Below are positions 25,673 through 62,968 of a DNA stretch of 64,000 nt, one piece after another. Position 1 is the stretch's first letter, and each line of letters begins with the position of its first letter. Made by a program: the position numbers and the translations under genes. The notes below the pieces were generated by a model, which made no database searches, had not been told where the DNA came from, and was given only the letters and a program-made list of their open reading frames with translations. Source of the DNA: Pohlia nutans (lineage: Eukaryota > Streptophyta > Bryopsida > Bryales > Mniaceae); the NCBI GenBank assembly GCA_022496805.1, contig CM040092.1, forward strand, positions 17,192,113 to 17,256,112, in the 5' to 3' direction.

Positions 25673-26173
25673 TTAGAGATAACATTAAAACGTCATGTTG
25701 AATGTGTTATGGATAAACAAGATAATGGTAAAAATTGTGTTACTTAGACTTTTTGCAAACTATGGTCTATCAAGAAGGGGTTGCAACTTTTGCAACTAAA
25801 ACCTGTGCAACTCATGCTACTGGTGTAGTAATGTGCACCTCACGACCTCAAATCAGATAAAAAATTTCAATCCAAAATAGAGTTTCTATTAATACTTCCT
25901 CCCTGACAATTGTCATGCTTATTTCAAGACTATGGGCTTTACTCAACAACCTTTTCGTTTTTTCACACCATGGGGAATTAGAGCCTTTTATACATTACCT
26001 CCATAGCTAGGTTTTATGAAAAATGTATATCAGATCCTACTTCCAAAATTGGACCATTACTTCATTTCTAAAAAATCAATTCCAAAAAATTTGAAAAAAA
26101 AAAAATCATGAAAAAATGAATTAAAAAATATGTAAAGAAATTACCCATAATTTAAAAATATGGCAGCTTTGTA

Positions 26174-26723
26174 CAGTAGGGTCCAAGGCAGAATGGCGTT
26201 TTTGGTTTCCCAGTGGAAAAAAATTCAAGTCTGCCCACTTTGAAAGCCTCTAGAGAGATCAAAAATTGGTATTTTACCTTGAAATTTTTACCGTGAACCT
26301 GAAATCAAGTTGTTAGTATGCCCACCAAACTTCAAAGCCAAATAATTCACCAAAACAAAGTTACTCAAAATCTACCAATATAGGTAGCTGTGGAAAAGGT
26401 TTCACTCCTACCAACTTCGACAGCCTCCCAAGAATTGAAAAAAAAATTCCTTACTTTGATGTTCTTTTGGTAGAAATAAATTTGTGTTAGTAATATATGG
26501 TAAAAATCTCAAGTCTAAAAGATTAGTAAAAAAAAGATAATCCCAATCTACCAACATGTGTTATTTTGCGGTATGCTTGTGGAAATCATTTTCACTACAA
26601 CCAACTTTGACACCCTCTCAATGGCTAAAAAATGGCCCATTTTCCATGAAATTCTTGTCACAAGATAAGCTACATGTTAATGACAAGTGTGCCAAAATTC
26701 AAGCTCAAAAAGCTTACACAAAG
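26174..26723 (+). repeat. Left terminal inverted repeat of the Tc1-like element
   Basis: About 550 bp, near-identical to the reverse complement of 28163-28712; identity stops at CTTACACAAA. The peptide-like frames 26556-26783 and 28075-28329 are the same repeat read on opposite strands and are not genes. Confidence 0.85.
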
Positions 26724-26738
26724 AAAATAACTCACAAT

Positions 26739-27754: not shown

Positions 27755-28162
27755 CAATCACAACTTTAAATCTGAGAATTTGATCTAAAATTTTAACTAC
27801 CTAACCACATGTCCATACATGCTCCCCTCCCAAATCAACCTTGATGTGCATAATGTGCTTCCAAATCAGCTTGTGCATACCTTCACTCCCAAACCGGTGT
27901 GTGTAGACCTTTCCTCTCAGATGAACCCTCATGTGCATATATACTCTTACTCCCACATCACCATGTGCATACCTTTGCTTTCAAATAACCCTTCTCAAAT
28001 CATCACACATTCTACAAGTCACTTGTGATATTCAACTTTCAAAACAAGCATTGATGTAGAGAACAAAAGCTCCTTCATGCGTATGTGGTGTTCAAATTCT
28101 TAGCAAGTGTATTCATTGGGATGTGACAAGTGCGCACAATTAAATTTGGATGTTCTTGATTT

Positions 28163-28712
28163 TTTGTGTAAGCTTTTTGAGCTTGAATTTTGGCACACTT
28201 GTCATTAACATGTAGCTTATCTTGTGACAAGAATTTCATGGAAAATGGGCCATTTTTTAGCCATTGGGAGGGTGTCAAAGTTGGTTGTAGTGAAAATGAT
28301 TTCCACAAGCATACCGCAAAATAACACATGTTGGTAGATTGGGATTATCTTTTTTTTTACTAATCTTTTAGACTTGAGATTTTTACCATATATTACTAAC
28401 ACAAATTTATTTCTACCAAAAAAACATCAAAGTAAGGAATATTTTTTTCAATTCTTGGGAGGCTGTCGAAGTTGGTAGGAGTGAAACTTTTTCCACAACT
28501 ACCTATATTGGTAGATTTTAAGTAACTTTGTTTTGGTGAATTATTTGGCTTTGAAGTTTGGTGGGCATACTAACAACTTGATTTCAGGTTCACGGTAAAA
28601 ATTTCAAGGTAAAATACCAATTTTTGATCTCTCTAGAGGCTTTCAAAGTGGGCAGACTTGAATTTTTTTCCACTTGGAAACCAAAAACGCCATTCTGCCT
28701 TGGACCCTATTG
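28163..28712 (-). repeat. Right terminal inverted repeat of the Tc1-like element
   Basis: Inverted partner of 26174-26723. A few small indels in homopolymers separate the two arms, so they have begun to diverge. Confidence 0.85.
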
Positions 28713-29141
28713 TACACACTTACGATATGTTGCTAAGAATTTGTAAAGTTAAAATTCAACCCCCTTCTAGCACTTCCCATATAATAGGTGCACTTTTGAG
28801 AAGCGACACGCACCTTTTCCAAGAATTATTGATACATTTAGAATCGCATAACCAAATATAGAAAAGAAATATTGTGGTAGGTACCTTGGCATTTTAATTC
28901 TTCAAACAATACATTTTGTTTTACATAAGAATTCAATCTCAATATTTCTTGGTGATTTTCCAAAAATTGAAAAAGTGCAGCAATTCCTGCACTGCGTCAA
29001 AAAAAGTGGTGTACCGTAACTTGCAATCACCCCTTATCTTGCTTATCCATAACGTGTCATTTCCATATTATCTATAAGTGCCAAGGTTGTCTAACTCAAC
29101 TCCTAAACAAAGTGTCTCATTAGTATAAAAAAACTACCTCA

Positions 29142-38469: not shown

Positions 38470-39279
38470 TTCAGACGCGCCTCCGGATCAAGAACACGAC
38501 AAAAATATGCTCTTTCTCCAAGCGCGTTCAACGCTCCACAATCGTCACGGCGACCACCATGGAATCACAGTCCTCCTCTCGGATCCAGAACACCTACATC
38601 ACTACACAAGTCACCATAAGCCAACCTCTACTTCCACTCTCGCAACAAATCTAATCCTCAATAAAAACTACTCCGACAAATGCTATAGATTATTTTTTCC
38701 AAAAAATTAGAGATATTGAAAGGCTTCAGCTCTCTGAAAATTTACACGTAATCATAGTCGTCGTCTCTCAACAACCGCAACAATAAACAGAACGTTCCGA
38801 CTAAACACCGGAGAATTTCTTGCCAGTCCTAGAATCAAACCTATTCATCAGGCAACACTAAAAAAAGAGACGCAAACGAAAGAAAGAGTGATCCAAACCA
38901 CATTAGGTCAAGATCGAGTGTAGCAGCAACCGGTACTGTACTTGATCCCGAGTGTGTACAGCATTCAAAACTAACTGCCAGCTACTTGCAATGAATGCGC
39001 ATTGAAGGTTCTCTCTGCCGGGGAAAAAAAGCAAGTAAGTTCGTGAAATGTTTTTTTACTGAACAAGAAATTTGCTAAAAATAACGCAAGGGCGACGACT
39101 TAGTTGACAAAAACTACTGTTGACGAGAGAGTGCCCATGGCAGGACTCACGCAGAATGGATGGTGCAGAGGAGTGTCGGCAATGCGCCATCGGGAAAAGT
39201 GCGATCAGCATTTGATTTCCCTGATGACCATGGACAGCTTGAATGCGAGGAGGAGGCCCGCCATAGCCCAACCTCGTCA
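38470..39279 (-). promoter_or_regulatory. Upstream region of the kinase gene
   Basis: About 800 bases between the kinase start codon and the inverted segment A. Composition is more balanced than the intergenic background, as expected for a 5' UTR and promoter. I cannot fix a TATA box or transcription start. Frames on either strand here show no domain. Confidence 0.35.
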
Positions 39280-39537
39280 CGAGGCAGTGCTGAGTTTGAG
39301 CAAGGGCTGAGGGGCTTGAGGGCCGTCGATTGCAGGGACGGCCAAGATCTTACGACGAGATTAGAGGGGGACGAGTTGCCTTGAGGTGGCAGGTCTGACG
39401 GGTCAGCTTGTTAGGGAATGTCAGGGAATCATGGAGAGCATGATTAAGTCGATTGAAGTTAAAGGCCCATGATCAAGTAAATTAAGATGAAGTAATTTAT
39501 TAAGCCCCATGATCAAGTAAGCCCCATGATCAAGTAA

Positions 39538-39839
39538 GAGCATCTCCACCCATGCTCGCTAAAGGTGACTCGCTAAAATTATTCATCTATATTTGAAGAG
39601 CCCTTGAAATCACACTCCCCCACCCTTGAATGCCCCTCAAGCACCAAAAGTGCACGTCAAATAGTCAATGCACCAATCACAAGTAGAATGTCAGATTCAG
39701 TCAACTAAACTTAGATTTAGAGGGCCATTTCTTAACACGCCAAAGTTGAGGGCCAAGAGGCATTTTTGAAGGGCCCTTAGCATTTTTCATCCACTTATTG
39801 CGTGTGTCAGACTCTTGGCGAGTATGGGTGCGGATGCTC
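39538..39839. mobile_element. Tourist-like MITE, 302 bp, TAA duplication
   Basis: GAGCATCTCCACCCATGCTC at left, and its inverted partner ends in GGATGCTC; TAA on both sides (39535-39537, 39840-39842). The matching site in segment B (54376-54378) has a single TAA (TTA on the plus strand) and no element, so target and boundaries are confirmed by an empty site. A second copy is at 57489-57791. Confidence 0.85.
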
Positions 39840-39940
39840 TAATTCAAGTAAATAAATTATGCGACATGCTCCAGTTCTTGAGGGGCCAGAGCAAACCCAG
39901 GCTTGAGGGGTTGAGGGCCAGAGCAAACCCTTTACATTAA

Positions 39941-40480
39941 CCCTTTAAGGTCCCGATTCAACATTGTTTTCAAAGACTCGTTAAAAAATGGTTGATGAAA
40001 AACAAAAATGGAGTTGATGTACAAAGCAAAGTTGTAAATGTCAATGTGAATATCACATCTGTACGGTTGGGTTTGTCATATTTATTATTAACATTTTTTA
40101 ATTAATTTTCCAAGGCTTTCTCTTGAAATTCAATTAAAAATCCAAAATTAACACAAATAAATTTTTAAAGATTATAATGAAATTGGAATAACATGTACTA
40201 CAAGATGGTATGGTTTCCATTATTTGATTCTAGTTATTATGGAAAATCTTGTTTACAGTCTCACTTTTTGAACTAAGATTGAAACTTGACATAAACCACT
40301 TTTTTAATTTTTCAAAAATTCACATTATCTTATTTTGAATATCCATACCGTACAAATGGTAGTCAACTAGCACAAGAATCAAGAGAATTTTGGATTGATG
40401 AAAAACATCACCGCATGTGGTGAAGGGACGCATCGGAAATCATCCAACGTCCAAAATATGGACGCTGGCGCATCAAAGGG
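39941..40480. mobile_element. piggyBac-like MITE shared by segments A and B
   Basis: TTAA at 39937-39940 and 40481-40484; ends CCCTTTAAGGTCC and, from the right, CCCTTTGATGCGCC. 540 bp. The inverted copy at 53738-54277 sits in the same flanking sequence, so it was present before the segment duplicated. Confidence 0.65.
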
Positions 40481-40792
40481 TTAATTTGGTGTTGCATCCA
40501 TTTTGTAATAACATTGAACCACTGAACCCATTTATCCCATTGAACCCATCTTGTAATAACATTGTAACATTGTAAAATTTCTAAATCTTTCTCCAATGCT
40601 CTTGGATGCGCTTTGTTTTGGGATTTTAAGTTTGTCTTACTTGATTGATTCCTACTAAATTCCCTCATATAGTGGCAAGTGCCATCTTTCACTCTAGTTC
40701 CAAGAAAAGTCATTGTACTAGTAAAAATCAAACCAAGCAGTAGGGGGTGCAAACCCTATCTTTATAGAATGTAATGAACCTTCAAAGCTTAA

Positions 40793-41362
40793 CCCCTAAC
40801 TGCCTAAGCGTCCATTTTTTGGACGATGTACAGATTTCATCCATAATTTCTCATCCGTCATGCACTTTTAGCAGTGTGGAATTTTTACTGTAGATTACTA
40901 TGGGAAGTTAGCTTCATGCATATGTGATCCGATTAGAAAGGGGATGATTTGTGAAAATTTTATGCCTCATTTCATGTTGTAGTGATTCACCCAAATTTTT
41001 GAAGATTTCAGTGTAAAAGTGCTCTAAAAAAAGTCAACTCATAAAATTAAGCAACCAAAAAATCTCCAAAAATCACTACACTTAGAGTATTACATTTCAA
41101 CCAATCACAAAAAAATTCATCTGTAGATTGTCAATATCTTATTCGTAATTGAATTACAAAATAATTTTGAATTTCACGTTTCAAATTTCATACAAAATTA
41201 TTGGTAATAGCAATCATAGATCTAACCGTATGGATAGAATATAAAATTCATAATGTACAACTTTTATTCATATATCAAGTTCAAAATTTTCCTGTAGGTT
41301 GCATTTTATAATGCATCTTTGCAAAACTGCCGAATTTGGAGAGGGCTCTAGGCATTTAGGGG
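40793..41362. mobile_element. piggyBac-like MITE with empty site in segment B
   Basis: TTAA at 40789-40792 and 41363-41366; ends CCCCTAACTGCCTA and, inverted, CCCCTAAATGCCTA. 570 bp. Segment B reads straight through a single TTAA (44097-44100) at this point. Closely related to 42318-42886 and to the truncated end at 56097-56196. Confidence 0.85.
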
Positions 41363-41525
41363 TTAAAAAAATGAATTGTAATTGATGAAAAAAAGTGCCC
41401 ACACCCCTACGTGCCTACATCCTTCTAAAATTTGGAGAATTGCAAAGATGCATAATAAAATGCAACTATGAAGGATAGTTTGAATTTGATGAATAAATAA
41501 AATTTGTACATCAAGATTTGAGATT

Positions 41526-42313
41526 CTATCCATACAATTAGATATGCGGTTGCTATCAGCAATATTTTTACATAATTTTGAAACTCAAAAGTTAAAATGC
41601 TTTTGTAATTTGTGTATGAATAGGATATTGGCAATTTGTAGATCAAATTTGTTGCGACATGTTGTAATGTAATACCCTAAGTGGAGTGAATTTTTGGAGA
41701 ATTTTTGGTTGTTTGATTTTATGAGTTGGTTTTTTTAAGAGCCCTTTTGAACCAAGACTTTAGATTTTTGGGTGAATCATAGCAATATGAAACGAGGCTA
41801 AAAATTCTATTTAAAGTTGATAAAAATTATGTTTACAAATAGTTAAAAGATGAAAGTGAAGAAATAAAATGAGACGCATGGCTGGAGCATTCTTAGAAAG
41901 CCCTTGTATTTTGAACACTCAAATTTCAAATTTCTTGACATTGCGTAAAATCTTCAAATGAAATCTATTCTCCAATTTCAATGGTCAAAAGATGTATATA
42001 TTTAACTCAACTTAAACATCTAATGAAAACACTGAATCCATCAAAGCTAAAACACTTGATTTTTTGGACCTTTTACGAAAAACAATCTCTAGATGGATTG
42101 TCCTTTAGTTGATGAGCAATTTCACTTCAAATTTGATAAAAATTACATTTTTAGAATGTTAACAATGGAGGATTTAAGCTACATTGTTTTTACTAAAAGA
42201 AATGCTTTCAACATGGAGATATTCACATTTAAAAATAATATGTAACTCAATTATTTCCCATTTTTTCATCTTTTTCAACATTCTTTTGTACATTTAGTCT
42301 AGTCTTATTCACT
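41526..42313. other. AT-rich spacer between inverted segments, MITE-derived in part
   Basis: The first ~300 bases continue a reversed, diverged member of the 40793-41362 MITE family (blocks such as CTCCAAAAATTCAC and the Ala/Ile-type frames are shared). The rest is AT-rich, with no gene. Confidence 0.45.
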
Positions 42314-46045: not shown

Positions 46046-46055
46046 GGTTCAGTGG
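46046..46055. other. 10-bp target-site duplication, left copy
   Basis: GGTTCAGTGG, repeated at 53690-53699 on the other side of the 7.6-kb insertion. The same 10 bases occur once at the uninterrupted site in segment A (40519-40528, opposite strand). Confidence 0.85.
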
Positions 46056-46479
46056 GGGAAATGCTAGTATGTGAGCAGTGAGCAGTGAACGGTGAGCAGT
46101 GAGCAGAGATTTTGGAAAAAAATTCAGGGTTTTGAATTTTGAAGCACCTCCTATTACAGCGGATTTAGGGTGTAATAAATGAATATTTGTAGTTATTGGT
46201 TTCAATAAAAGGACCTATAGCCGTGGTTTGAAGAGTTTGGTTTAGGGTAGTTTAGGATTTAGGGTAGCTTCAAAACAATGAAAAACATTCAAAGAATTTG
46301 AATAATTAATCCCATTCAACAATAATGTATGGCATTCAGAACATTGATGACTAAATCATTGATGCCTTAAATTGAGGCTACACATTCAAATGTATTAGAA
46401 CATTTAAATCTCTTAAAACATTCAAATGGTTTAGGGTCTCCACGGACACCGATCAAGTTATTGAATATCACCAAAGCAT

Positions 46480-46756
46480 ACAATGACATTTAAAACATTC
46501 AAATCATAGAAAGTGCCAAAGCAATCAAAGTCATTATAAACATTCAAAGGATTTGTAAAGACAAAGCAATCAAGATCATTATAAACTTTCAAAAGAATCG
46601 TAAGGACAAAGCATTCAAGATCATTATAAAATTTCAAAAGAATTGTAGAGACAAAGCATTCAAGATCATTATAAACTTTCAAGGTGACGTAAAGACAATG
46701 TATTCAATATCATTATAAACTTTCAAATGCTTTGTAAATACAAAGCATTCAAGCCA
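46480..46756 (-). repeat. 45-bp minisatellite next to the methyltransferase stop
   Basis: About six diverged 45-bp units (CATTATAAACTTTCAAAAG-type followed by ACAAAGCATTCAAGAT) lie just downstream of the methyltransferase-like stop codon. Because 45 is divisible by 3, a repetitive frame (46458-46682, minus) stays open; I read it as 3' UTR or flanking DNA, not protein. Confidence 0.7.
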
Positions 46757-46761
46757 TACAA

Positions 46762-48287
46762 TCAAATTGATTCTCCATCAGATTCAATAGCACTCACATT
46801 GAAATATGAGAGCACTCGTGGATCATATAGTTGATGCAGTGTGGAAGAATTAGAGGAACTACCCGAGCTAGCATTGGCAAAGGCTGTTGCCAATGCTTCG
46901 GCGTATACTGGCAATCCTTGAGGAGAACTGTCAGGAGTGAGCAAAGTCTGGAACGCGCGTTTACGAATCAAATGGCGCCGTTTTATTGGAGACGGACTTG
47001 TCAAACTGCAAATAAGAGGACATCAAATATTACAAAACATCATGCACATGTAGATGTAATAACTTGTACTTGCAATTTGCATTACTTGACCAATGAAACT
47101 TACTCACATATTTTGTCAAAGGGCTCGTCAGGAAGCGTGTCTTCATCGTCATCATCGAGCTGGATTGGAGTGGTGGGAGGTGGAGTTGTACGAATTTGGG
47201 GAGCTACGAGTGGTTTTAAGACCTCGTTAAATAGCTTTGAATCACTTTCAAGAGCTACAATGTGACGATTGCAGGCCCTGGCTGCACGGATAGAAGCACC
47301 TTCACAACAGAGGATGGAATGTTTATTAGATTGAAGTTTGAGAATGAAATGAAATTGTACAATCCATAAAATTGCCATAAGAAATACCTGTGGAAGCAGT
47401 GAGGTCTGCCACGATACCATCCTTTGGAGTTAATCCGTGCACAAAAAGCTTCATGAGAACTTCAGACTTCTCTTTAGGACCACGCCATGGTCTGCCATTG
47501 TCCTTGCGCAACAGCTGTGACTCCAATGTAACAGAGTTGAAAAGGACGTCATCACAAGCCAAGTCTACCTGAGGAACTAATGGATCTTTTGCAATGCTGA
47601 GCGGAGGTGGCTGCATGGCCGCAATAGATGGAACATCACGGACCATAAGAACTGCCTTGAACTTCAATGTCTACAAAGAATATTTAATGTTAATATGCCG
47701 TAGCTCAAATACAAATAATAGTGCAATAGTAGAATGAAATAGAGGTAACCAAGAGAGTTGAAGAATCTTACATTTTTGGTGGGATAAAGAGGGTTTGCAA
47801 GATGAAGATAGTTGATTATAGTCCATTCATCCACAATCTTCATCTTGTAATTCTTGAAGTACGACATCAATTCCTTCCTCACAATGGGATTATCCGGATA
47901 GAAAAGTAGGAATGAACCATCATCATGAAGATAGGCATATGCAAATCCCATAGTTACCTTGAGAAAATTGTCAACGTACTCATTCCAATGTGAAATTTGA
48001 AAAGGAGGGTCAGAAACACCAGGGACCCTGAGCCCGTTTGGGTACTCTGCAATTAGCAAATCAATCCCTGGTTTCCGTAGAAGCTTACCATCAAAGTAGT
48101 ATTCCCTAGATGCACTAACCTGCATGAGAATGGAAATGATCTAGTATTAGACAAAGTGACAAACTAGAGGATAAAGAAGAACCTCAAGAAAACTAAAAAA
48201 AACCAGGAAAATGTAAGATGTAATCACCTTGGATAAAAACTGAATAATCTCACCCGCAAGTATGAGCTCAGAGTTCACCCCCAAACA
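46762..48287 (-). CDS. Permuted (class beta) DNA amino-methyltransferase-like protein
   Basis: Five exons on the minus strand: 48287-48228, 48119-47772, 47670-47388, 47299-47104, 47005-46762. All junctions are GT-AG with matching phases, giving 376 residues. Near residue 50, SDPPFQISHW followed by GSFLLFYPDNP resembles motif IV (DPPY/F) and the next strand of N6-adenine/N4-cytosine methyltransferases. Residues ~210-250 (RGPKEKSEVL, VADLTASTGASIRAA, HIVALESDS) resemble motif X, the AdoMet-binding motif I and the acidic motif II. Motif IV before motif I is the circularly permuted class beta order. The first Gly of motif I is replaced (ASTG), so activity is uncertain. The tail is Pro/Asp-rich (TTPPPTTPIQLDDDDED) and Ser-rich. 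Upstream coding is not certain; a 48-bp candidate first exon (49386-49339, MNEAGEMSERDLLPLK) is in phase but has a weak donor. Lies inside the MULE-like element. Confidence 0.65.
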
Positions 48288-48312
48288 CTAGCAAAAAAAG
48301 AGCACCAATCAA

Positions 48313-48595
48313 GTGCCGGTACCGGCAGTGCAGAATCAAGGGTTTAGAAATATCACGGAGGGGCGACCATTCCAGTGCCGGTACCGGCAATGCTTCAGCA
48401 AGGGAACTTGGAATATCACGGAGGGGCGACCATTCCAGTGCCGGTACCGGCAGTGCTTCAGCAAGGGGACTTGGAATATCACGGAGGGACGACCAGACCA
48501 GTGCCGATACCGGTAGTGCTTCAGCAAGGGAACTTGGAATATCACGGAGGGGCGACCAGACCAGTGCCGGTATCGGCAGTGAGGTAAGAGCATTT
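48313..48595. repeat. 63-bp minisatellite with GCCGGTACCGGC palindrome
   Basis: Five units starting 48313, 48375, 48438, 48501 and 48564 (period 62-63). Each carries GTGCCGGTACCGGCA or a one- or two-base variant, followed by TTCAGCAAGGGAACTTGG and ATATCACGGAGGGGCGACCA. It falls in the intron just upstream of the first confident methyltransferase exon. A degenerate extra unit lies at about 48886-48960. Frames through the array are not proteins. Confidence 0.85.
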
Positions 48596-48959
48596 TATGA
48601 TTAGATATTCACAAGCATGCTTACACTACCATGATTAGATATTCACAAGTTTCTGTTTGAAATAATAAGCAATTATTAGGAGCACAACCCCAAGCACAAC
48701 TTGTGCTTATTTGTGCATTCAAATTCAAAGACATGTGACTTAGAATACGTTCAAGAGAACTTACTGAATGAATCAAATTCAAAGACAATCTCAATACTGT
48801 TTTGAAGACTTCATTTTTATTGAGTTATAAATCTACTTTTTCAAATTATTTTCTAGCTACATCTACGAATATTGAAACAAAGGAACTTGGCAGGTGATAG
48901 AGGGGCGACCAGACCAGTGCCGGTACAGACAGTGCTTCATCAAGGGTTCAGGAATATCA

Positions 48960-49160
48960 TGCGGCAGTACTCATGCGGCAGTACGCATGCACGATTCAAG
49001 ATCGTGCGACAGTATTCAAGATTCGAGATTCATGATTCAAGATCGTGCGGCAGTATTCAAGATTCAAGCAAATTCAAGATTCGAGATTCATGATTCAAGA
49101 TCGTGCGGCAGTATTCAAGATTCAAGCAAATTCAAGATTCGAGATTCGAGCAAATTGAGC
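48960..49160. repeat. Irregular ATTCAAGATTCGAG repeat tract
   Basis: Units containing GTGCGGCAGTATTCAAG recur at 49002, 49043 and 49101 (spacing 41 and 58), with many short ATTCAAGA repeats between them. Probably a replication-slippage product; no gene. Confidence 0.6.
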
Positions 49161-50577
49161 TGACTTAGACAAGATTTGAGGAGCGAGAATCCCGGATCTA
49201 AGAAGGCAAACTCTCGGATTGAGTCGCAGTGAATTTGAGGTCTGAATTCGAGGCATACTCCGCTCCTAAAATCAACTGCAGACCTAAACTCCTAAAATAG
49301 AAAGGAAAGGAACGGAAAGCAATGAAATCCAACCGGACCTTCAGGGGAAGAAGGTCGCGCTCGCTCATCTCCCCTGCCTCATTCATTTTGCCACCAATGC
49401 TACAGCCTATATTCACATTCACAAACAAACAACAAAAGTGAGCCACAAGCATCAGTGAGCCGCATCAGAAATCGCTTCTGCACGATCTCCATCCAACCTC
49501 ATCACATTCCATGAAATCGCCTAAAACCGCAAATGCACAAACCGGATTCAAATTTGAAACCACCAGCCTGGGCAAGAATAAAAACGAAATGGAGGACCAC
49601 TTCAGAATCAAGTGCCGGTACCGGCAGTACCCTGGCAACGTATCAACTGACAAGCGAGAACTGCAAGAGACAACTAGAACTGAGTAAAGTCAACACTTCT
49701 GTGTACATTCCGTGTACATGTGCGAAAGAGTCAACACTGCCGTGTACATGTGCGAAATAGTCGGTTTTAATAATGCTTCCTTCACAACCAACGTCACGTG
49801 CCAATGCTTGGAAAATGTTTCGCAAACCACTGGGGATACTGAACCTATATTGGGGATGATCGTGATGTTGATGATCGGTATATTAGGACTCATAGTTTGA
49901 AATTTCAAAAATTTGGGTTAAATAAAAGTAAAGGAAAAGTCACCGTCAAGCCAACTTGACTTTCTCTACCCCAATCAGCCTAAAAACACAGAAGACAGCT
50001 ACGTTGATTTCTTCTGTTTCTCTGGACAAACGAAAGCAAACTTTCATTGCAAGGAACGACAAAGAGAAGAATAATTTTGAATTCCATCCCTTTTATGAGC
50101 TAGGGAGAGCGTGCCACAGTTGCCTTTAAGGTGGTTACCCCATTTCCAACTGAATAAGAAATACGGATATGAGACATTGATATTATTTAGTATTTTTTTT
50201 TAAGAGTTAGGCAAGAAGAAATAGATTTCAACACAAGTTGAAACATAATTTTTGGATGAAGAATGAATTAGTTATAAATTTCCAAAGTTGAAGCATGCAT
50301 GACACATCCCAGTCACGGCACATAGGTAGAGTTGTTTCTGTCTAAAGAAAATTTGTATTGCACACACTAAAGATGCTTAAACCAACAACAACAAATTCAT
50401 AACCACACTTACATATACTAGAACTAGCAAGAGAGAACCCATTATCAAAAGTCATGCCTGCCTGCATGCCTCGATTTTAATGAGATATTGGGCTCTGAAT
50501 TTGAAACATTCTATTTACAAAAGATGTCAAGTATACGCCAGGGTAATGCTAGCCAAGCTAATTCTAATGAGATTGAA

Positions 50578-50900
50578 CACAAGGGAACCCAAAATCGCAG
50601 TGCCGGTACCGGCAATGCAAAATCACAAGCAAAACTTAGAACACAAGGGAACCCAAAATCGCAGTGCCGGTACCGGCAGTGCAAAATCACATGTAAAACT
50701 TAGAACACAAGGGAACCCAAAATCGCAGTGCCGGTACCGGCAATGCAAAATCACAAGCAAAACTTAGAACACAAGGGAACCCAAAATCGCAGTGCCGGTA
50801 CCGACAGTGCAAAATCACATGCAAAACTTAGAACACAAGGGAACCCAAAATCGCAGTGCCGGTACCGGCAGTGCAAAATCACAAGCAAAACTTGAATACA
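50578..50900. repeat. 64-bp minisatellite with GCCGGTACCGGC palindrome
   Basis: Five units with GTGCCGGTACCGGCA (fourth unit ACCGACA) starting at 50600, 50664, 50728, 50792 and 50856, an exact 64-bp period. The unit also contains ACACAAGGGAACCCAAAATC. Apart from the palindrome and a CAAGGGAAC block it is unrelated to the 63-bp array 2 kb away. Confidence 0.9.
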
Positions 50901-50913
50901 AGGGGACCCAAAT

Positions 50914-51283
50914 ATGACGAGATTGAGAATTCTCAAGTTCGATTCTGCTGAAGTTTCTTTTCAGTGTAGCGACTGCAATTTTTGGAATCTCGGAGCGTGT
51001 AATATACCGTTGGAAAGGTCTTGAGAATACCTTTCCAATGGTATACTATGCGCCCTTGAAATTGTCGAAAAAGGACTGCCGGTACCGGCAGTCGTTTTTG
51101 GGGTCTTGAAGCGGCCATGACGAGATTGAGATTTTCTGAAGTTTGATTCTGCTGAAGTTTCTTTTCGGTGTAGCGACTGCAATTTTTGGAATCTCGGAGC
51201 GTGTAATATACCGTTGGAAAGGTCTTGAGAATACCTTTCCAATGGTATATTACGCGCCCTTGAAATTGTGAAAAAAGGACTGT
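50914..51283. repeat. Duplicated ~165-bp hairpin unit around a 20-bp palindrome
   Basis: Two direct copies (50914-51078 and 51117-51283) each contain a hairpin. In the second copy, 21-base arms (51203-51223 and 51233-51253) pair with one mismatch around a 9-base loop. Between the copies sits the perfect 20-bp palindrome GACTGCCGGTACCGGCAGTC (51074-51093). The second copy runs directly into the transposase-like coding sequence. Confidence 0.8.
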
Positions 51284-53141
51284 GGAGATGCATCAATCCC
51301 AATGCCGAATAAAGAAGGAACTTGTCTCTTCCATTGGGTGCAATCATTGGAGATGTACACGAAGGCTGACATCAGAGCTGACCTCCAAGACCCCACATCG
51401 CATGCTCTGCAAGCAATACAAGAACGCCTCAACGCAATCGGATGCAGATTCCAGGTACTTGGCTATCCGAGCTTGGTGGCTGTCCTCAGGAGCTACAACA
51501 GAAGATGGATTGAGACGTTTCGACCTATGGCTTGCCTTCTAGCATTTTCGATACCGCCAATGGGGAGGCTTCATGCAGCTGGTGAGCTCCTAAACCCTAA
51601 ATCTGAAACCCTAAGTCTCTGCCATTGCTTATTTTCCTCTCTTCACCTACAAATTCTAAAGGTGCACTGCTTTCTATATACCAGGACCTCACTAAGGACG
51701 AGTTGGCTGAAATGTCCTCTTACAACTTAGCGGAAAGTATCCACAACAAATGGAAACAACAGTCCGGTGATCGAGGGTCAGACTTTTTGTCGCTACTGTG
51801 GATGATTTCGTCCGATCCTTCATGCAGAGCGTCGCCTACTACCAATACCTCAAGGGGGATAGAGCTGGATCCGGCCCTACCAAAGAAGAACTGAAACTTC
51901 GGATTGCACATAAGTCCAAAGAGCGCACGGGGAATTCAAAATCCCTACACGAAGCATTAGCGAAAATGCAGGGTGTTGAGGAGTTCTGCACTCGAACGCC
52001 TCAACTCGAAGGAGAGGAAGTCTTCTTGTCGTTGAAGCGGAAAGCAGACGTTCCCATCGGCTTGGAGTTTGACTCTCACCGACCTGATACGATCAGCATC
52101 TCGCGTCCTCGAGTCCAGACCAGGTCTGCAGGGAACAACGTCCTAAACCTCAATGCTTCTCCTGTAGAGCTGGCAGACTCTCCCCAAGCATTAGAGAAAT
52201 TAGATGTGCCAGTGCAGGTACCAGAGCCCAACCCAGCGGCAGCCCTAAACCACGTTATTTCCGTGCAAGAAACGGCTTGTGACGAGAGTCAGTGGCACAT
52301 AGCTAGGCTGCCAAAAACATCTGCGAAGGCTTGTTTCGCGGAGCAAGCTGTCACTAAGAAGAAGTGCATCGCTCGAATCGTACAAGACGAAAAATCTACC
52401 GCTGCTCCTACGTACACAGGCTTGATGGACAACTACAAGAAAAATCGCAAGGACCGCATGCAATTTTTCTTCTGCAACAACGACATTGAGAGGTGTGTTA
52501 AAGGAACCCGCAGAAAGTGGGTTATGTCCCGCCCGGAGGTCCCCGAGATCTGGCCCGTCAAGAACGGCACTAACCTAATACGCAAGGAGATACTTGCCTT
52601 AGAGAATGCTCGCTTTCGACTTCCACAGTGGGAGGTCATATCGCCGCGAACGCTCTTCCAAGACCACCCTCTCCCCGTTGACTTGTCATCCTATGCAACT
52701 CCAACATTCCCTGATGAAGTTCCCAAGCGACGGCACGGCAAAAATGTCCGCCGCAACAAGAAGAGCCCATCTATCAAGCAAGCCAACAACTGTGCCAGTG
52801 CTGGAGCATACAAAGGTCGCATAAGGAAGGTGGACATGGTTCCAGTCTCTGCCCTAGGTTGCATCGTCACGATGGATTCGGGCACACCTTCGACAATTCA
52901 GCAGTACCATCTCATAATTTCCCAGTTTCCAAACTGCTCCTGCCTTTATTTCAAGGAGATGCTGACTAAGGCAAAGGGAGCCCGCAGTCAATGGGCTCAC
53001 TGCAAACATTTGTATTTTGTCTTCACGGTCATTTGTGGGTTTGATGCTGATGTAGATACCTTCATACATGCACCCACTCTTAGCTTCAACGAAGTTAAGC
53101 TAGTTCTTCAGAGTGGATTGTTGACTCATCCAACATCTTAG
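51272..53141 (+). pseudogene. MULE-type transposase remnant with SWIM zinc finger
   Basis: Would be the C-terminal half of a Mutator-like transposase. The first frame reads IPMPNKEGTCLFHWVQSLEM (a C-x2-H motif as in MULE catalytic domains). A shift at the CCCC run 51391-51394 leads into HRMLCKQYKNAS, RYLAIRAWWLSSGATTEDGL and FDLWLAF. An intron (51582-51684, CTG/GTGAGC...ACCAG) joins LTKDELAEMSSYNLAESIHN. A second shift at the T5 run 51784-51788 leads to the long final frame ending at 53141. That frame has the SWIM signature C-x-C (52935-52943) and C-x-H (53001-53009), and a basic stretch PKRRHGKNVRRNKKS. The in-frame stop at 51269 and the repeats upstream show that the D-D part of the DDE triad is missing here. 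Both shifts lie in homopolymers, so sequencing error is possible. Confidence 0.7.
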
Positions 53142-53689
53142 GGTACTTCAATGTTTCTAGTTCTATTTTTGACATGTTCACTCTTCAAATTAATGAAATT
53201 GTAGTGAGACTAAAAGGGCCACTACTGCAGTTTTCAAAATCATATTCTATTCTTTACCCTAAACTTTGGAATTTCTTCTATTTTGTACCCTTAACCGTAG
53301 CTGGTCTATATCATCAATTTGCTACTCAGTTCAAATAATATTGATGTAGAAAATCTATGCCTAAACCTTCTGATTGGTCCATAACAAGGGTGTAATAAAT
53401 TAAATTTTCATTTTACCCTAAAACCGCGGAATTGGGTCCAATTACCACGGTTTTAGGCACAAAGTGTGCCTTTCATGTGCCTTGTACATTTTCCACCAAC
53501 CCAATTCCACGGTTATAGGTACCAAATATTCCACGGCCATAGGTCCAAAATTTTACTAAAAATAACCGAATATTCGAATATTTGCTAAATATAGTATCGT
53601 TGACCACGGTTGACCTGAAATTCTTGCTCGTAATCTCACATTTCTCCGCTCATTGCTCCCCGCTCCCCGCGCGCATACTATCCTCGTTC

Positions 53690-53699
53690 GGTTCAGTGG
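53690..53699. other. 10-bp target-site duplication, right copy
   Basis: GGTTCAGTGG, identical to 46046-46055; resumes segment B sequence directly. Confidence 0.85.
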
Positions 53700-58690: not shown

Positions 58691-58746
58691 TGAACAATGC
58701 ATGATTTTTCTTCTTACATATACACTTACTATTCTGTGTTTTCAAA

Positions 58747-59098
58747 CTCAGCAGACTTTGGCGGCCATTTTGACATAGTAGAATAACTTTTTTCAAAACT
58801 TTTTAGACTAAGAAAAGCTAGGAAATCAAGTTAAGTTTCATCTCCAAAAATTCGTTTGTGATTTTAAGCCTCCATTCAAAAGTTATAGACAAAATTCAGA
58901 GAGGATGTTTGAAAATATCAAAGAAAATATTCCTTGCTACCCCACTCTGAATTTTGTCTATAACTTTTGAATGGAGGCTCAAAATCACAAACGGATTTTT
59001 GGAGATGTAACTTAACTTGATTTACCAGCTTTTCTTAGTCCAAAGATTTAAGAAAAAGTTATTCTACTATGACAAAATGGCCGCCAAAGTCTGTTGAG
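58747..59098. repeat. Foldback element, 352 bp, intact copy
   Basis: Arms of ~165 bases (58747-58915 and 58935-59098) are near-perfect inverted copies, beginning CAGACTTTGGCGGCCATTTTG, with a short centre. Uninterrupted relative of 1488-2362. Confidence 0.8.
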
Positions 59099-59112
59099 TT
59101 TTTTTTTTTAAA

Positions 59113-62085: not shown

Positions 62086-62968
62086 AACACCCAATTCGCT
62101 AATTTTGCACTTGGCCATATAATCATGCACTTGGCCCCCAAGCGCATTAAAAAAAAATGTTTGAAAAATTCTATAAAAAATAGCCATTTTTGGCTTTTTA
62201 TAATCCCTTACATTGTAAAAAAACAAATTTTTAATTTATTTTGTATTCTCATCTTTATCTTTTATTTTATCTTTATCTTTATCTTATCTTTTCTTTCCTT
62301 TTATCTTGTTTTTTTCTTGTCTTCTTTCTTGTCTTCCTCTTGTCTTCCTTCTTCTTTTTCTCCTAGTCTTCCTCTTCTTCTTCTAGTCTTCTTCTTGTCT
62401 TCCTTTTTTTTATCTTCACCTTGCCATTTCTGGAGTTTAAACCTTCAAAAAAAAAAGTTAAAATAAAAATCAGGGAGCAGCCGATGGCTGAATCCAATAC
62501 AGGCCAATTTTTTTTTTAAAATTTTTTTTTAAATTTTTTTTAAATTTTTTTTTTTAATTTTTTTTTTGGCCTGTATTGGATTCAGCCATCGGCTGCTCCC
62601 TAATTTTTAAATTTTTTAAATTTTTTTAACGTTTAAACTCCAGAAATGGCAAGGTGAAGAAAAAAGAAAGGAAGACAAGAGGAAGACTAGAAGAAAGAGA
62701 GGAAGACTAGAAGAAAAAGAAGAAGGAAGACAAGAAAAAAAAACAAGATAAAAGAAAAGAAAATATAATATAAAGATAAAGATAAAGATAAAGGATAAAA
62801 ACAATAATACAAAATAAATAAATAAATAATTTTTTTACAACGTAAGGGATTGTAGAAAGACAAAAATCGTTGTTTTTTAAAGAATTTTTCAAACAAATTT
62901 TTTTAAAGCCAACTTTGCTCATGGAATGAGTGCACTTGGCCAAGTGCAAAATTAGGGAACTGGGATTT
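62086..62968. mobile_element. Palindromic foldback element, copy 3, with TTCC duplication
   Basis: Left end AACACCCAATTCGC, TTCC on both sides (62082-62085, 62969-62972), 883 bp. The whole element is a near-complete palindrome: outer CACTTGGCC blocks, pyrimidine/purine arms, and a perfect 35-bp inner pair (62474-62508 and 62566-62600, ending CAATACAGGCCAA) around a T/A-rich loop. The hydrophobic frames inside (62616-62949) are tract artefacts. Confidence 0.8.

What the first reader, a model, noticed from the sequence alone, without database searches (positions are those of the whole stretch)
46056..53689. A Mutator-like transposon carrying a DNA methyltransferase-like gene
The 7.63-kb segment is proven as an insertion by its 10-bp duplication (GGTTCAGTGG) and the single uninterrupted copy of that target in segment A at 40519-40528. 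Its ends are degenerate inverted repeats (28 of 44 by eye). It contains a SWIM-type MULE transposase remnant and, divergently, a spliced gene resembling a permuted N6-adenine/N4-cytosine methyltransferase. MULEs that capture host genes are known, but I do not recognise this pairing. A self-encoded methylation-related protein could protect, silence or de-repress the element, or it could be passive cargo.
Basis: partly seen in the sequence, partly recalled or inferred. Interest (0 to 1): 0.92.

Follow-up and report, generated by a model that had tools for sequence, protein, structure and literature searches.

The report
Moss jumping gene with methyltransferase-like gene
A stretch of moss DNA is a decayed copy of a many-copy jumping gene whose relatives carry, beside the jumping enzyme, a long-preserved protein that looks like a DNA methyltransferase with an altered active site, probably a helper that recognises or controls the jumping gene's own DNA.

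Summary
46056-53689 is an insertion: 10-bp duplication, an uninterrupted paralogous target, imperfect ~170-186-bp terminal inverted repeats. Two exact scaffold lengths identify the genome as the Antarctic moss Pohlia nutans. Of 20 other copies fetched, 19 carry DNA of the methyltransferase-like gene. The subfamily looks non-autonomous: in 18 of 21 sequences the transposase's first-exon tail starts at the same residue, without the N-terminal half.

The gene is no one-off capture. Of 7 loci with the transposase N-terminal half, 6 carry it, divergently, with a third, unidentified gene between; the third gene lies upstream-divergent of 26 of 64 such transposases, shifted control mean 0.22. Between two subfamilies exon 3 has dN/dS 0.078.

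The fold is a permuted amino-methyltransferase (CcrM, MTA1, METTL3), but the motif IV slot is D/E-x-P-E/D in nearly all rows, never aromatic (0 of 45). Catalysis is doubtful. Non-coding arrays carry a palindrome, as VANDAL elements carry VANC motifs. Best mechanism: DNA-binding anti-silencing or transposition cofactor; untested.

The parts
46056..53689 (.). non-autonomous MULE-like element, window copy (7634 bp)
   Evidence: 10-bp duplication and empty paralogous site; further copies with the same ends
46046..46055 (+). target site duplication, left copy GGTTCAGTGG
53690..53699 (+). target site duplication, right copy
39279..40773 (-). paralogous segment with the unoccupied site at 40519-40528
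   Evidence: self-BLAST
46058..46241 (+). left terminal inverted repeat (imperfect)
   Evidence: score 88 against a largest shuffled score of 60
53521..53689 (-). right terminal inverted repeat (imperfect)
48228..48287 (-). methyltransferase-like gene, exon 2 (numbering of this report; exon 1 not resolved)
   Evidence: AG/GT borders, open frame
47772..48119 (-). exon 3; holds the motif IV slot EYPN and the private SDPPF
   Evidence: 95% to P0130
47388..47670 (-). exon 4; PWRGPKEKSE (motif X region) and motif I DLTASTG
47104..47299 (-). exon 5; ASIRAARACNRHIVALESD (motif II region)
46762..47005 (-). exon 6 and stop codon
48304..48581 (.). tandem array, 63-bp unit, with the palindrome TGCCGGTACCGGCA or near variants
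48917..48934 (.). single palindrome-like site (2 mismatches)
49610..49629 (.). single palindrome site in another context
50575..50912 (.). tandem array, 64-bp unit, different from the first array outside the palindrome
51074..51093 (.). palindrome between the repeat copies 50914-51078 and 51117-51282 (about 204 bp apart)
51284..51578 (+). tail of the transposase first long exon; the N-terminal half is absent
   Evidence: matches from residue 597 to 694 of the L001 N-terminal part; truncated in the copy consensus too
51670..53141 (+). transposase last exon with SWIM-type CxC...CxH; 1-nt frameshift near 51780 in this copy
   Evidence: 120 of the 120 listed homologues match; consensus frame open

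Best explanation
The window element is a decayed, non-autonomous member of a large MULE-like transposon lineage in the moss Pohlia nutans. Relatives that hold the transposase N-terminal half carry three linked genes: a transposase on one strand and, divergently, an unidentified third gene and a methyltransferase-like gene. The window subfamily lacks the third gene and the transposase N-terminal half but kept the methyltransferase-like gene, the SWIM part and the ends, so it was presumably moved in trans. Shown: the insertion, the multi-copy structure, the shared truncation point, the recurrent linkage, purifying selection on the methyltransferase-like exon 3 between two subfamilies, neutral-looking decay of copies after insertion, the fold (on a relative), the altered motif IV, the palindrome arrays. 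Inferred: the protein no longer methylates bases but keeps AdoMet-type and DNA-binding surfaces, binds the element's palindromes or ends, perhaps as a dimer or with the third protein, and serves the element as a family-specific anti-silencing or transposition cofactor, in function like VANC of VANDAL elements. I give about 0.9 to 'core gene of a multi-gene MULE-like lineage', about 0.75 to 'not an ordinary active methyltransferase', and about 0.4 to 'palindrome-binding anti-silencing factor' as against another element-specific role.
Against: No expression, binding or methylation data. The copies show strong C-to-T excess in CG, CHG and CHH contexts, so any anti-silencing was not lasting. Palindrome arrays are clear in the window family and at C22, suggestive in L033 and L035, and not seen as arrays in L034, L036, L037 or L038. 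L038 has neither accessory gene within 9 kb. The C22 locus is itself decayed (SWIM exon and methyltransferase frames broken, ends and duplication not resolved). At the other six loci only the transposase N-terminal half was checked, some with stops. The selection test rests on one exon and one pair with high dS. One exon-3 place lies same-strand upstream of a transposase. The model was made on P0125, not the window protein, mean pLDDT 62.6. Which protein, if any, binds the palindrome is unknown.
Confidence: 0.5

Rival explanations
1. The protein is an active 6mA or 4mC methyltransferase that marks the element's own DNA, protecting it or changing its chromatin.
For: Amino-methyltransferase fold and circular permutation; a D-x-x-A-x-x-G type motif I in most of the 34 rows that hold it; palindromic sites resemble bacterial methylase targets (by eye, recalled).
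Against: No aromatic residue in the motif IV slot in 45 of 45 complete rows; the copies nevertheless bear a 5mC-type mutation footprint.
Confidence: 0.15
2. The protein is a transposition cofactor: it binds ends or palindromes and helps the transposase assemble, without any epigenetic role.
For: Conserved linkage with the transposase; palindromes beyond the 3' ends of both genes at C22; gene retained in the non-autonomous derivative.
Against: In the window element the palindromes lie in the interior, not in the terminal repeats; no functional test.
Confidence: 0.3
3. Passive cargo: a captured host gene fragment amplified with the element.
For: MULEs capture host sequence (passages of PMC6446971 and PMC13317346); singleton changes among copies look neutral.
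Against: dN/dS 0.078 between subfamilies; same gene order in 6 of 7 diverged loci.
Confidence: 0.05

Closest known systems
VANDAL MULEs of Arabidopsis with VANA/VANB/VANC
   Same: Multi-gene MULE; family-specific short motif arrayed in non-coding tandem repeats whose copy number varies (PMC5735166 passages).
   Different: Here the accessory protein has an amino-methyltransferase fold, the motif is a palindrome, and the elements have terminal inverted repeats, whereas PMC13317346 calls VANDALs non-TIR (passage). No comparison with a VANC sequence was run.
DNMT-carrying LINE and DIRS retrotransposons; DIRS elements with Dam-like adenine methyltransferase
   Same: A methyltransferase-type gene as part of a many-copy transposon (PMC5890265 passages).
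   Different: Those are retrotransposons, with C5 DNMT or Dam-like enzymes. Here it is a DNA transposon and a permuted amino-methyltransferase fold with altered motif IV. The same passages mention DNA transposons with a DNMT in marine viruses.
Beta-class amino-methyltransferases (CcrM, M1.HpyAVI, RsrI) and MTA1/METTL3
   Same: Fold and permuted motif order.
   Different: Motif IV slot D/E-x-P-E/D in nearly all rows instead of D/N/S-PP-Y/F/W (the canonical form is recalled).
Pseudo-methyltransferase partners such as METTL14 and MTA9
   Same: Methyltransferase fold with altered motif IV (recalled).
   Different: No catalytic partner was identified here; no direct relation tested.
Plant MULEs carrying Ulp1/PMD or other accessory genes
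   Same: Accessory open frames, often antisense to the transposase (PMC6446971 passages).
   Different: The word 'methyltransferase' has 0 occurrences in the main texts of PMC6446971 and PMC13317346.

Membership tests
Mutator-like element (MULE) | target site duplication of about 8-11 bp | tested here: met
   10-12-bp matching duplications (at most 1 mismatch, ends allowed to shift by 3) in 10 of 16 sequences with both ends, window included; none in 6, two of which share the same flanks
Mutator-like element (MULE) | terminal inverted repeats | tested here: met
   about 170-186 bp, imperfect, in the window copy
Mutator-like element (MULE) | MULE/Transposase_mut catalytic domain | tested here: inconclusive
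   the N-terminal half is absent from the window copy; in the relative L001, PF00872 Transposase_mut E 0.043, under cut-off, and none in L030; catalytic residues not mapped
Mutator-like element (MULE) | SWIM-type zinc finger | tested here: met
   CxC...CxH: C409, C431, H433 invariant and C411 at least 90% in 29 sequences; Pfam SWIM only E 0.16 in P0042, under cut-off
Beta-class amino-methyltransferase | fold and permuted order (motif IV before X and I) | tested here: met
Beta-class amino-methyltransferase | catalytic motif IV D/N/S-P-P-Y/F/W | tested here: not met
   0 of 45 complete rows of the 57-row alignment
Beta-class amino-methyltransferase | AdoMet-binding motif I | tested here: inconclusive
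   D-x-x-A-x-x-G type in most of 34 rows; the classical FxGxG form (recalled) is not seen
VANDAL/VANC anti-silencing system | VANC sequence homology | not tested
   no VANC sequence was compared
VANDAL/VANC anti-silencing system | motif arrays in non-coding tandem repeats, family-specific | tested here: met
   window family and C22, with different motifs; no such arrays seen in L034, L036, L037, L038
VANDAL/VANC anti-silencing system | protein causes loss of DNA methylation at its elements | not testable with these tools
   needs expression and methylome data

The most novel reading that the evidence does not exclude
A large lineage of moss MULE-like elements (1556 unscored candidate places for the gene, 150 scored) has turned a methyltransferase fold, with a conserved non-canonical D-x-P-E/D motif, into a reader of subfamily-specific palindromes, working with an unidentified third protein as an anti-silencing system that arose independently of VANC.
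Probability: 0.35. Interest if true: 0.92.

Novelty: new variant of a known kind. Interest (0 to 1): 0.8.

Why it matters
Transposon-encoded control of silencing is worked out in few systems. Here a moss element lineage keeps a methyltransferase-fold protein with an altered active site under selection, together with a third unknown gene and, in at least two subfamilies, different palindrome arrays. That would make co-evolution between a transposon protein and its DNA motif testable in bryophytes, and would add a methyltransferase-derived, possibly non-catalytic, factor to the arms race over DNA methylation.

Tried and rejected
DPPF as catalytic motif: rejected (copy consensus SDPPS; other members SDPPT, SNPPS, SVPSS). 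The family does hold occasional SDPPF or SNPPY at that downstream place (P0153, P0163). A regex tally of motif IV forced an acidic or amide fourth position and is not used; one search replaces it.

Passive cargo: rejected on dN/dS and linkage. Window copy as autonomous: rejected, no transposase N-terminal half in the window, in the copy consensus or in the 17 other copies that hold the tail.

Third gene as ParB-like: suggested by eye only (IPLCR...VFYV...DGNHR); no convincing Pfam, PHROG or PDB-sequence match. Not claimed, nor is a bacterial or phage origin that I considered on that basis.

Exon 1 of the methyltransferase-like gene: sought in the consensus of 18 sequences, not resolved. The N-terminal domain of P0125/P0126 gave no hit in the window outside 47190-48242.

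No relative in viral contigs; one locus in genome contigs. PDB sequence searches found no methyltransferase. The transposase model m9b40dada0b14 (pTM 0.38) was not searched further. The end pieces of the C17 element could not be fetched. A genome-wide palindrome search and a search with P0180 did not complete, so whether the palindrome is confined to these elements outside the window is untested.

Dropped rows: L014 (same flanks as L013), L022; both L013 and L014 were counted. In one search some L020 sites lie beyond the element. The 'other' class (185 sites) includes chance matches and is not used.

Papers: searches. None of the titles or abstract starts listed by 33, 60 and 94 describes a methyltransferase-like gene in a MULE; many subscription journals are not held. 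Passages only were seen of PMC13317346, PMC6446971, PMC5890265, PMC9247546 and PMC5735166. Recalled, from no call: Marchantia DN4MT1, METTL14/MTA9 and canonical motif details, the meaning of AVDCRST as a desert-soil study.
Full report
What is there. The 10-bp sequence GGTTCAGTGG flanks 46056-53689 and occurs once more in the window, on the minus strand at 40519-40528. Self-comparison shows that the DNA on both sides of the insertion aligns to one inverted paralogous segment, 39279-40773, at 97-98.5% identity, with the two inner alignments overlapping by exactly the 10 bp. This is a clean insertion with an empty site. The ends align as imperfect inverted repeats over about 170-186 bp with a local score of 88, above the largest of 200 shuffles, 60.

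Where it is. The window lies in contig C8 of a 697.8-Mb genome. Contig C1 is 52,153,166 bases and C17 is 30,709,574; these equal the maximum scaffold length and the scaffold N50 in Table 1 of the Pohlia nutans genome paper, PMC9247546 (passages seen). The host is therefore taken to be that Antarctic moss. The paper gives a genome GC of 41.53%; the window has 36.4%.

The element is multi-copy. A search with the left 445 bp gave 480 unscored candidates and 40 scored matches at 93-100%, the window included. I fetched 20 further copies of 10 kb. Nineteen of the 20 carry DNA of the methyltransferase-like gene, in some interrupted; L022 holds only the first 499 bp of the element. Both ends were found in 16 of 21 sequences (window included); 10 of those 16 have a matching duplication of 10-12 bp with at most one mismatch, and 6 do not, two of these (L013, L014) sharing the same flanks. 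Of the 40 listed left ends, 27 have an exon-3 hit within 10 kb inside the element among the 34 exon-3 places compared. L024 and L027 add two, making at least 29 of 40; the others, apart from L022, were not read.

The transposase. The window holds only the tail of the first long exon (51284-51578) and the last exon (51670-53138). The last exon belongs to a family of 304 database proteins with E up to 0.001, 120 of them listed, with CxC...CxH residues invariant or nearly so in 29 aligned members. L001, a contig in a cyanobacterial genome bin, shows the fuller arrangement: an N-terminal part of about 690 residues, an intron, then the SWIM exon. Pfam finds only weak Transposase_mut there (E 0.043), so the superfamily name rests on the duplications, the ends, the SWIM pattern and this weak match. 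The copy consensus of 15 sequences has an open last exon but also lacks the N-terminal half. In 18 of 21 sequences the match to the L001 N-terminal part begins at the same residue, 597 of 694; L011, L019 and L022 show none within 10 kb. The truncation is thus ancestral to the subfamily, which is non-autonomous by structure and was presumably mobilised in trans. The window copy has two further frame-changing indels of its own.

The methyltransferase-like gene. On the minus strand five exons with AG and GT borders give an open frame of 376 residues. Among the 17 of 21 sequences in which all five exons align, seven, the window included, have no stop, no frame-breaking indel and all splice dinucleotides. 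Changes among 14 full-length copies look neutral where private: 104 nonsynonymous, 27 synonymous, 7 stops, with a neutral expectation of 2.6 nonsynonymous per synonymous; shared changes are 19, 16 and 2 (L013 and L014, which share flanks, both counted). So individual copies decay after insertion. Transitions at C in CG, CHG and CHH contexts are 3.4-4.6%, 4.4-6.3% and 1.5-1.9%, against 0.2-0.5% at A and T (16 and 14 sequences, L014 dropped). That is the footprint expected of 5-methylcytosine in all three contexts, hence of silencing.

A three-gene lineage. Searching the genome with the L001 N-terminal part gave 2817 unscored candidates; 64 were scored, many with long frames without stops. I read 9 kb upstream (11.6 kb at C22) of seven of the 64, chosen across identity classes before any methyltransferase places were known. 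Six of seven have, divergently, both a methyltransferase-like gene and a third gene, in the order methyltransferase, third gene, transposase; L038 has neither within 9 kb. Only at C22 was the transposase read through to its SWIM exon, which is broken there, as is the methyltransferase frame. The third gene is 31-60% identical between three of these loci, is not found in the window or in the fetched copies, and has no convincing match in Pfam, PHROGs or PDB sequences. As an independent test, 150 scored third-gene places were compared with the 64 transposase places: 26 of 64 have one upstream and divergent within 25 kb, none on the same strand; one lies on the downstream side; shifted controls gave a mean of 0.22 and a maximum of 3 in 500. 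The 150 scored exon-3 places, which are those closest to the window's clade, gave 3 of 64 upstream and divergent and 1 same-strand, control mean 0.12 and maximum 2; the three are the three transposases of the 50% class with 708-residue frames.

Selection. The C17 locus (L035) has an N-terminal transposase frame without stops and a methyltransferase-like exon 3 that is 99.2% identical to database protein P0143 and of the window's clade. Against the window-family consensus, 116 codons give dN 0.106, dS 1.36 and dN/dS 0.078. One exon and one pair were tested; dS is high and rough.

Palindromes. The non-coding interior of the window element carries the palindrome TGCCGGTACCGGCA in arrays of 63-bp and 64-bp units, beside a 204-bp-spaced repeat and at single sites. 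All 24 matches in the window lie inside the element. With up to two mismatches there are 5 to 24 sites per sequence in 20 of 21 sequences; L022 has none. In three unit classes the palindrome is 97-98% conserved against 85-94% for its flanks; sites were picked by resemblance to the palindrome, which favours it somewhat. The C22 locus has a different, 28-bp near-palindrome at eight internal sites about 160 bp apart and once beyond the 3' end of each gene. Other loci show this less or not at all. A genome-wide count was asked for and not answered.

Interpretation. VANDAL elements of Arabidopsis are MULEs that encode VANC, which binds family-specific motifs in non-coding tandem repeats and removes methylation there (PMC5735166, passages). 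The moss lineage has a similar anatomy with a methyltransferase fold as the candidate factor. I therefore favour a DNA-binding element-specific factor, anti-silencing or cofactor, over an active methylase or passive cargo. Binding, and which protein binds, is inferred. The silencing footprint of the copies speaks against lasting protection, though it does not exclude protection while the protein is made.

Known or new. Methyltransferases in transposons are known from retrotransposons (PMC5890265, passages), and MULEs with accessory genes are known (PMC6446971, passages). The combination found here was not seen among the papers listed by searches. I rate it a new variant of a known kind.

Noticed in passing
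28160-28716 and 26170-26725: Inverted pair of 557 bp at 98% identity.
   Followed up: no
62090-62964, 40956-41806, 58744-59101: Segments that match their own reverse complement at 75-85% (foldback-like).
   Followed up: no
L030 3468-4352, L033 6175-7338, L034 5612-6295: Third gene of the element relatives, no database family found; a short IPLCR...DGNHR pattern recalls ParB-like domains by eye only.
   Followed up: partly
L001 (CADCWO010000080.1): A MULE-like transposase with an intron sits in a cyanobacterial genome bin, probably contamination by a eukaryote.
   Followed up: partly
L013 and L014 (C23:11.13 Mb and C23:11.07 Mb): Two element copies with the same flanking bases, about 70 kb apart in opposite orientation: a segmental duplication or an assembly artefact.
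   Followed up: no
L034 3785-4956: Tandem array of 322-bp units between the genes of a relative, without clear palindromes.
   Followed up: partly
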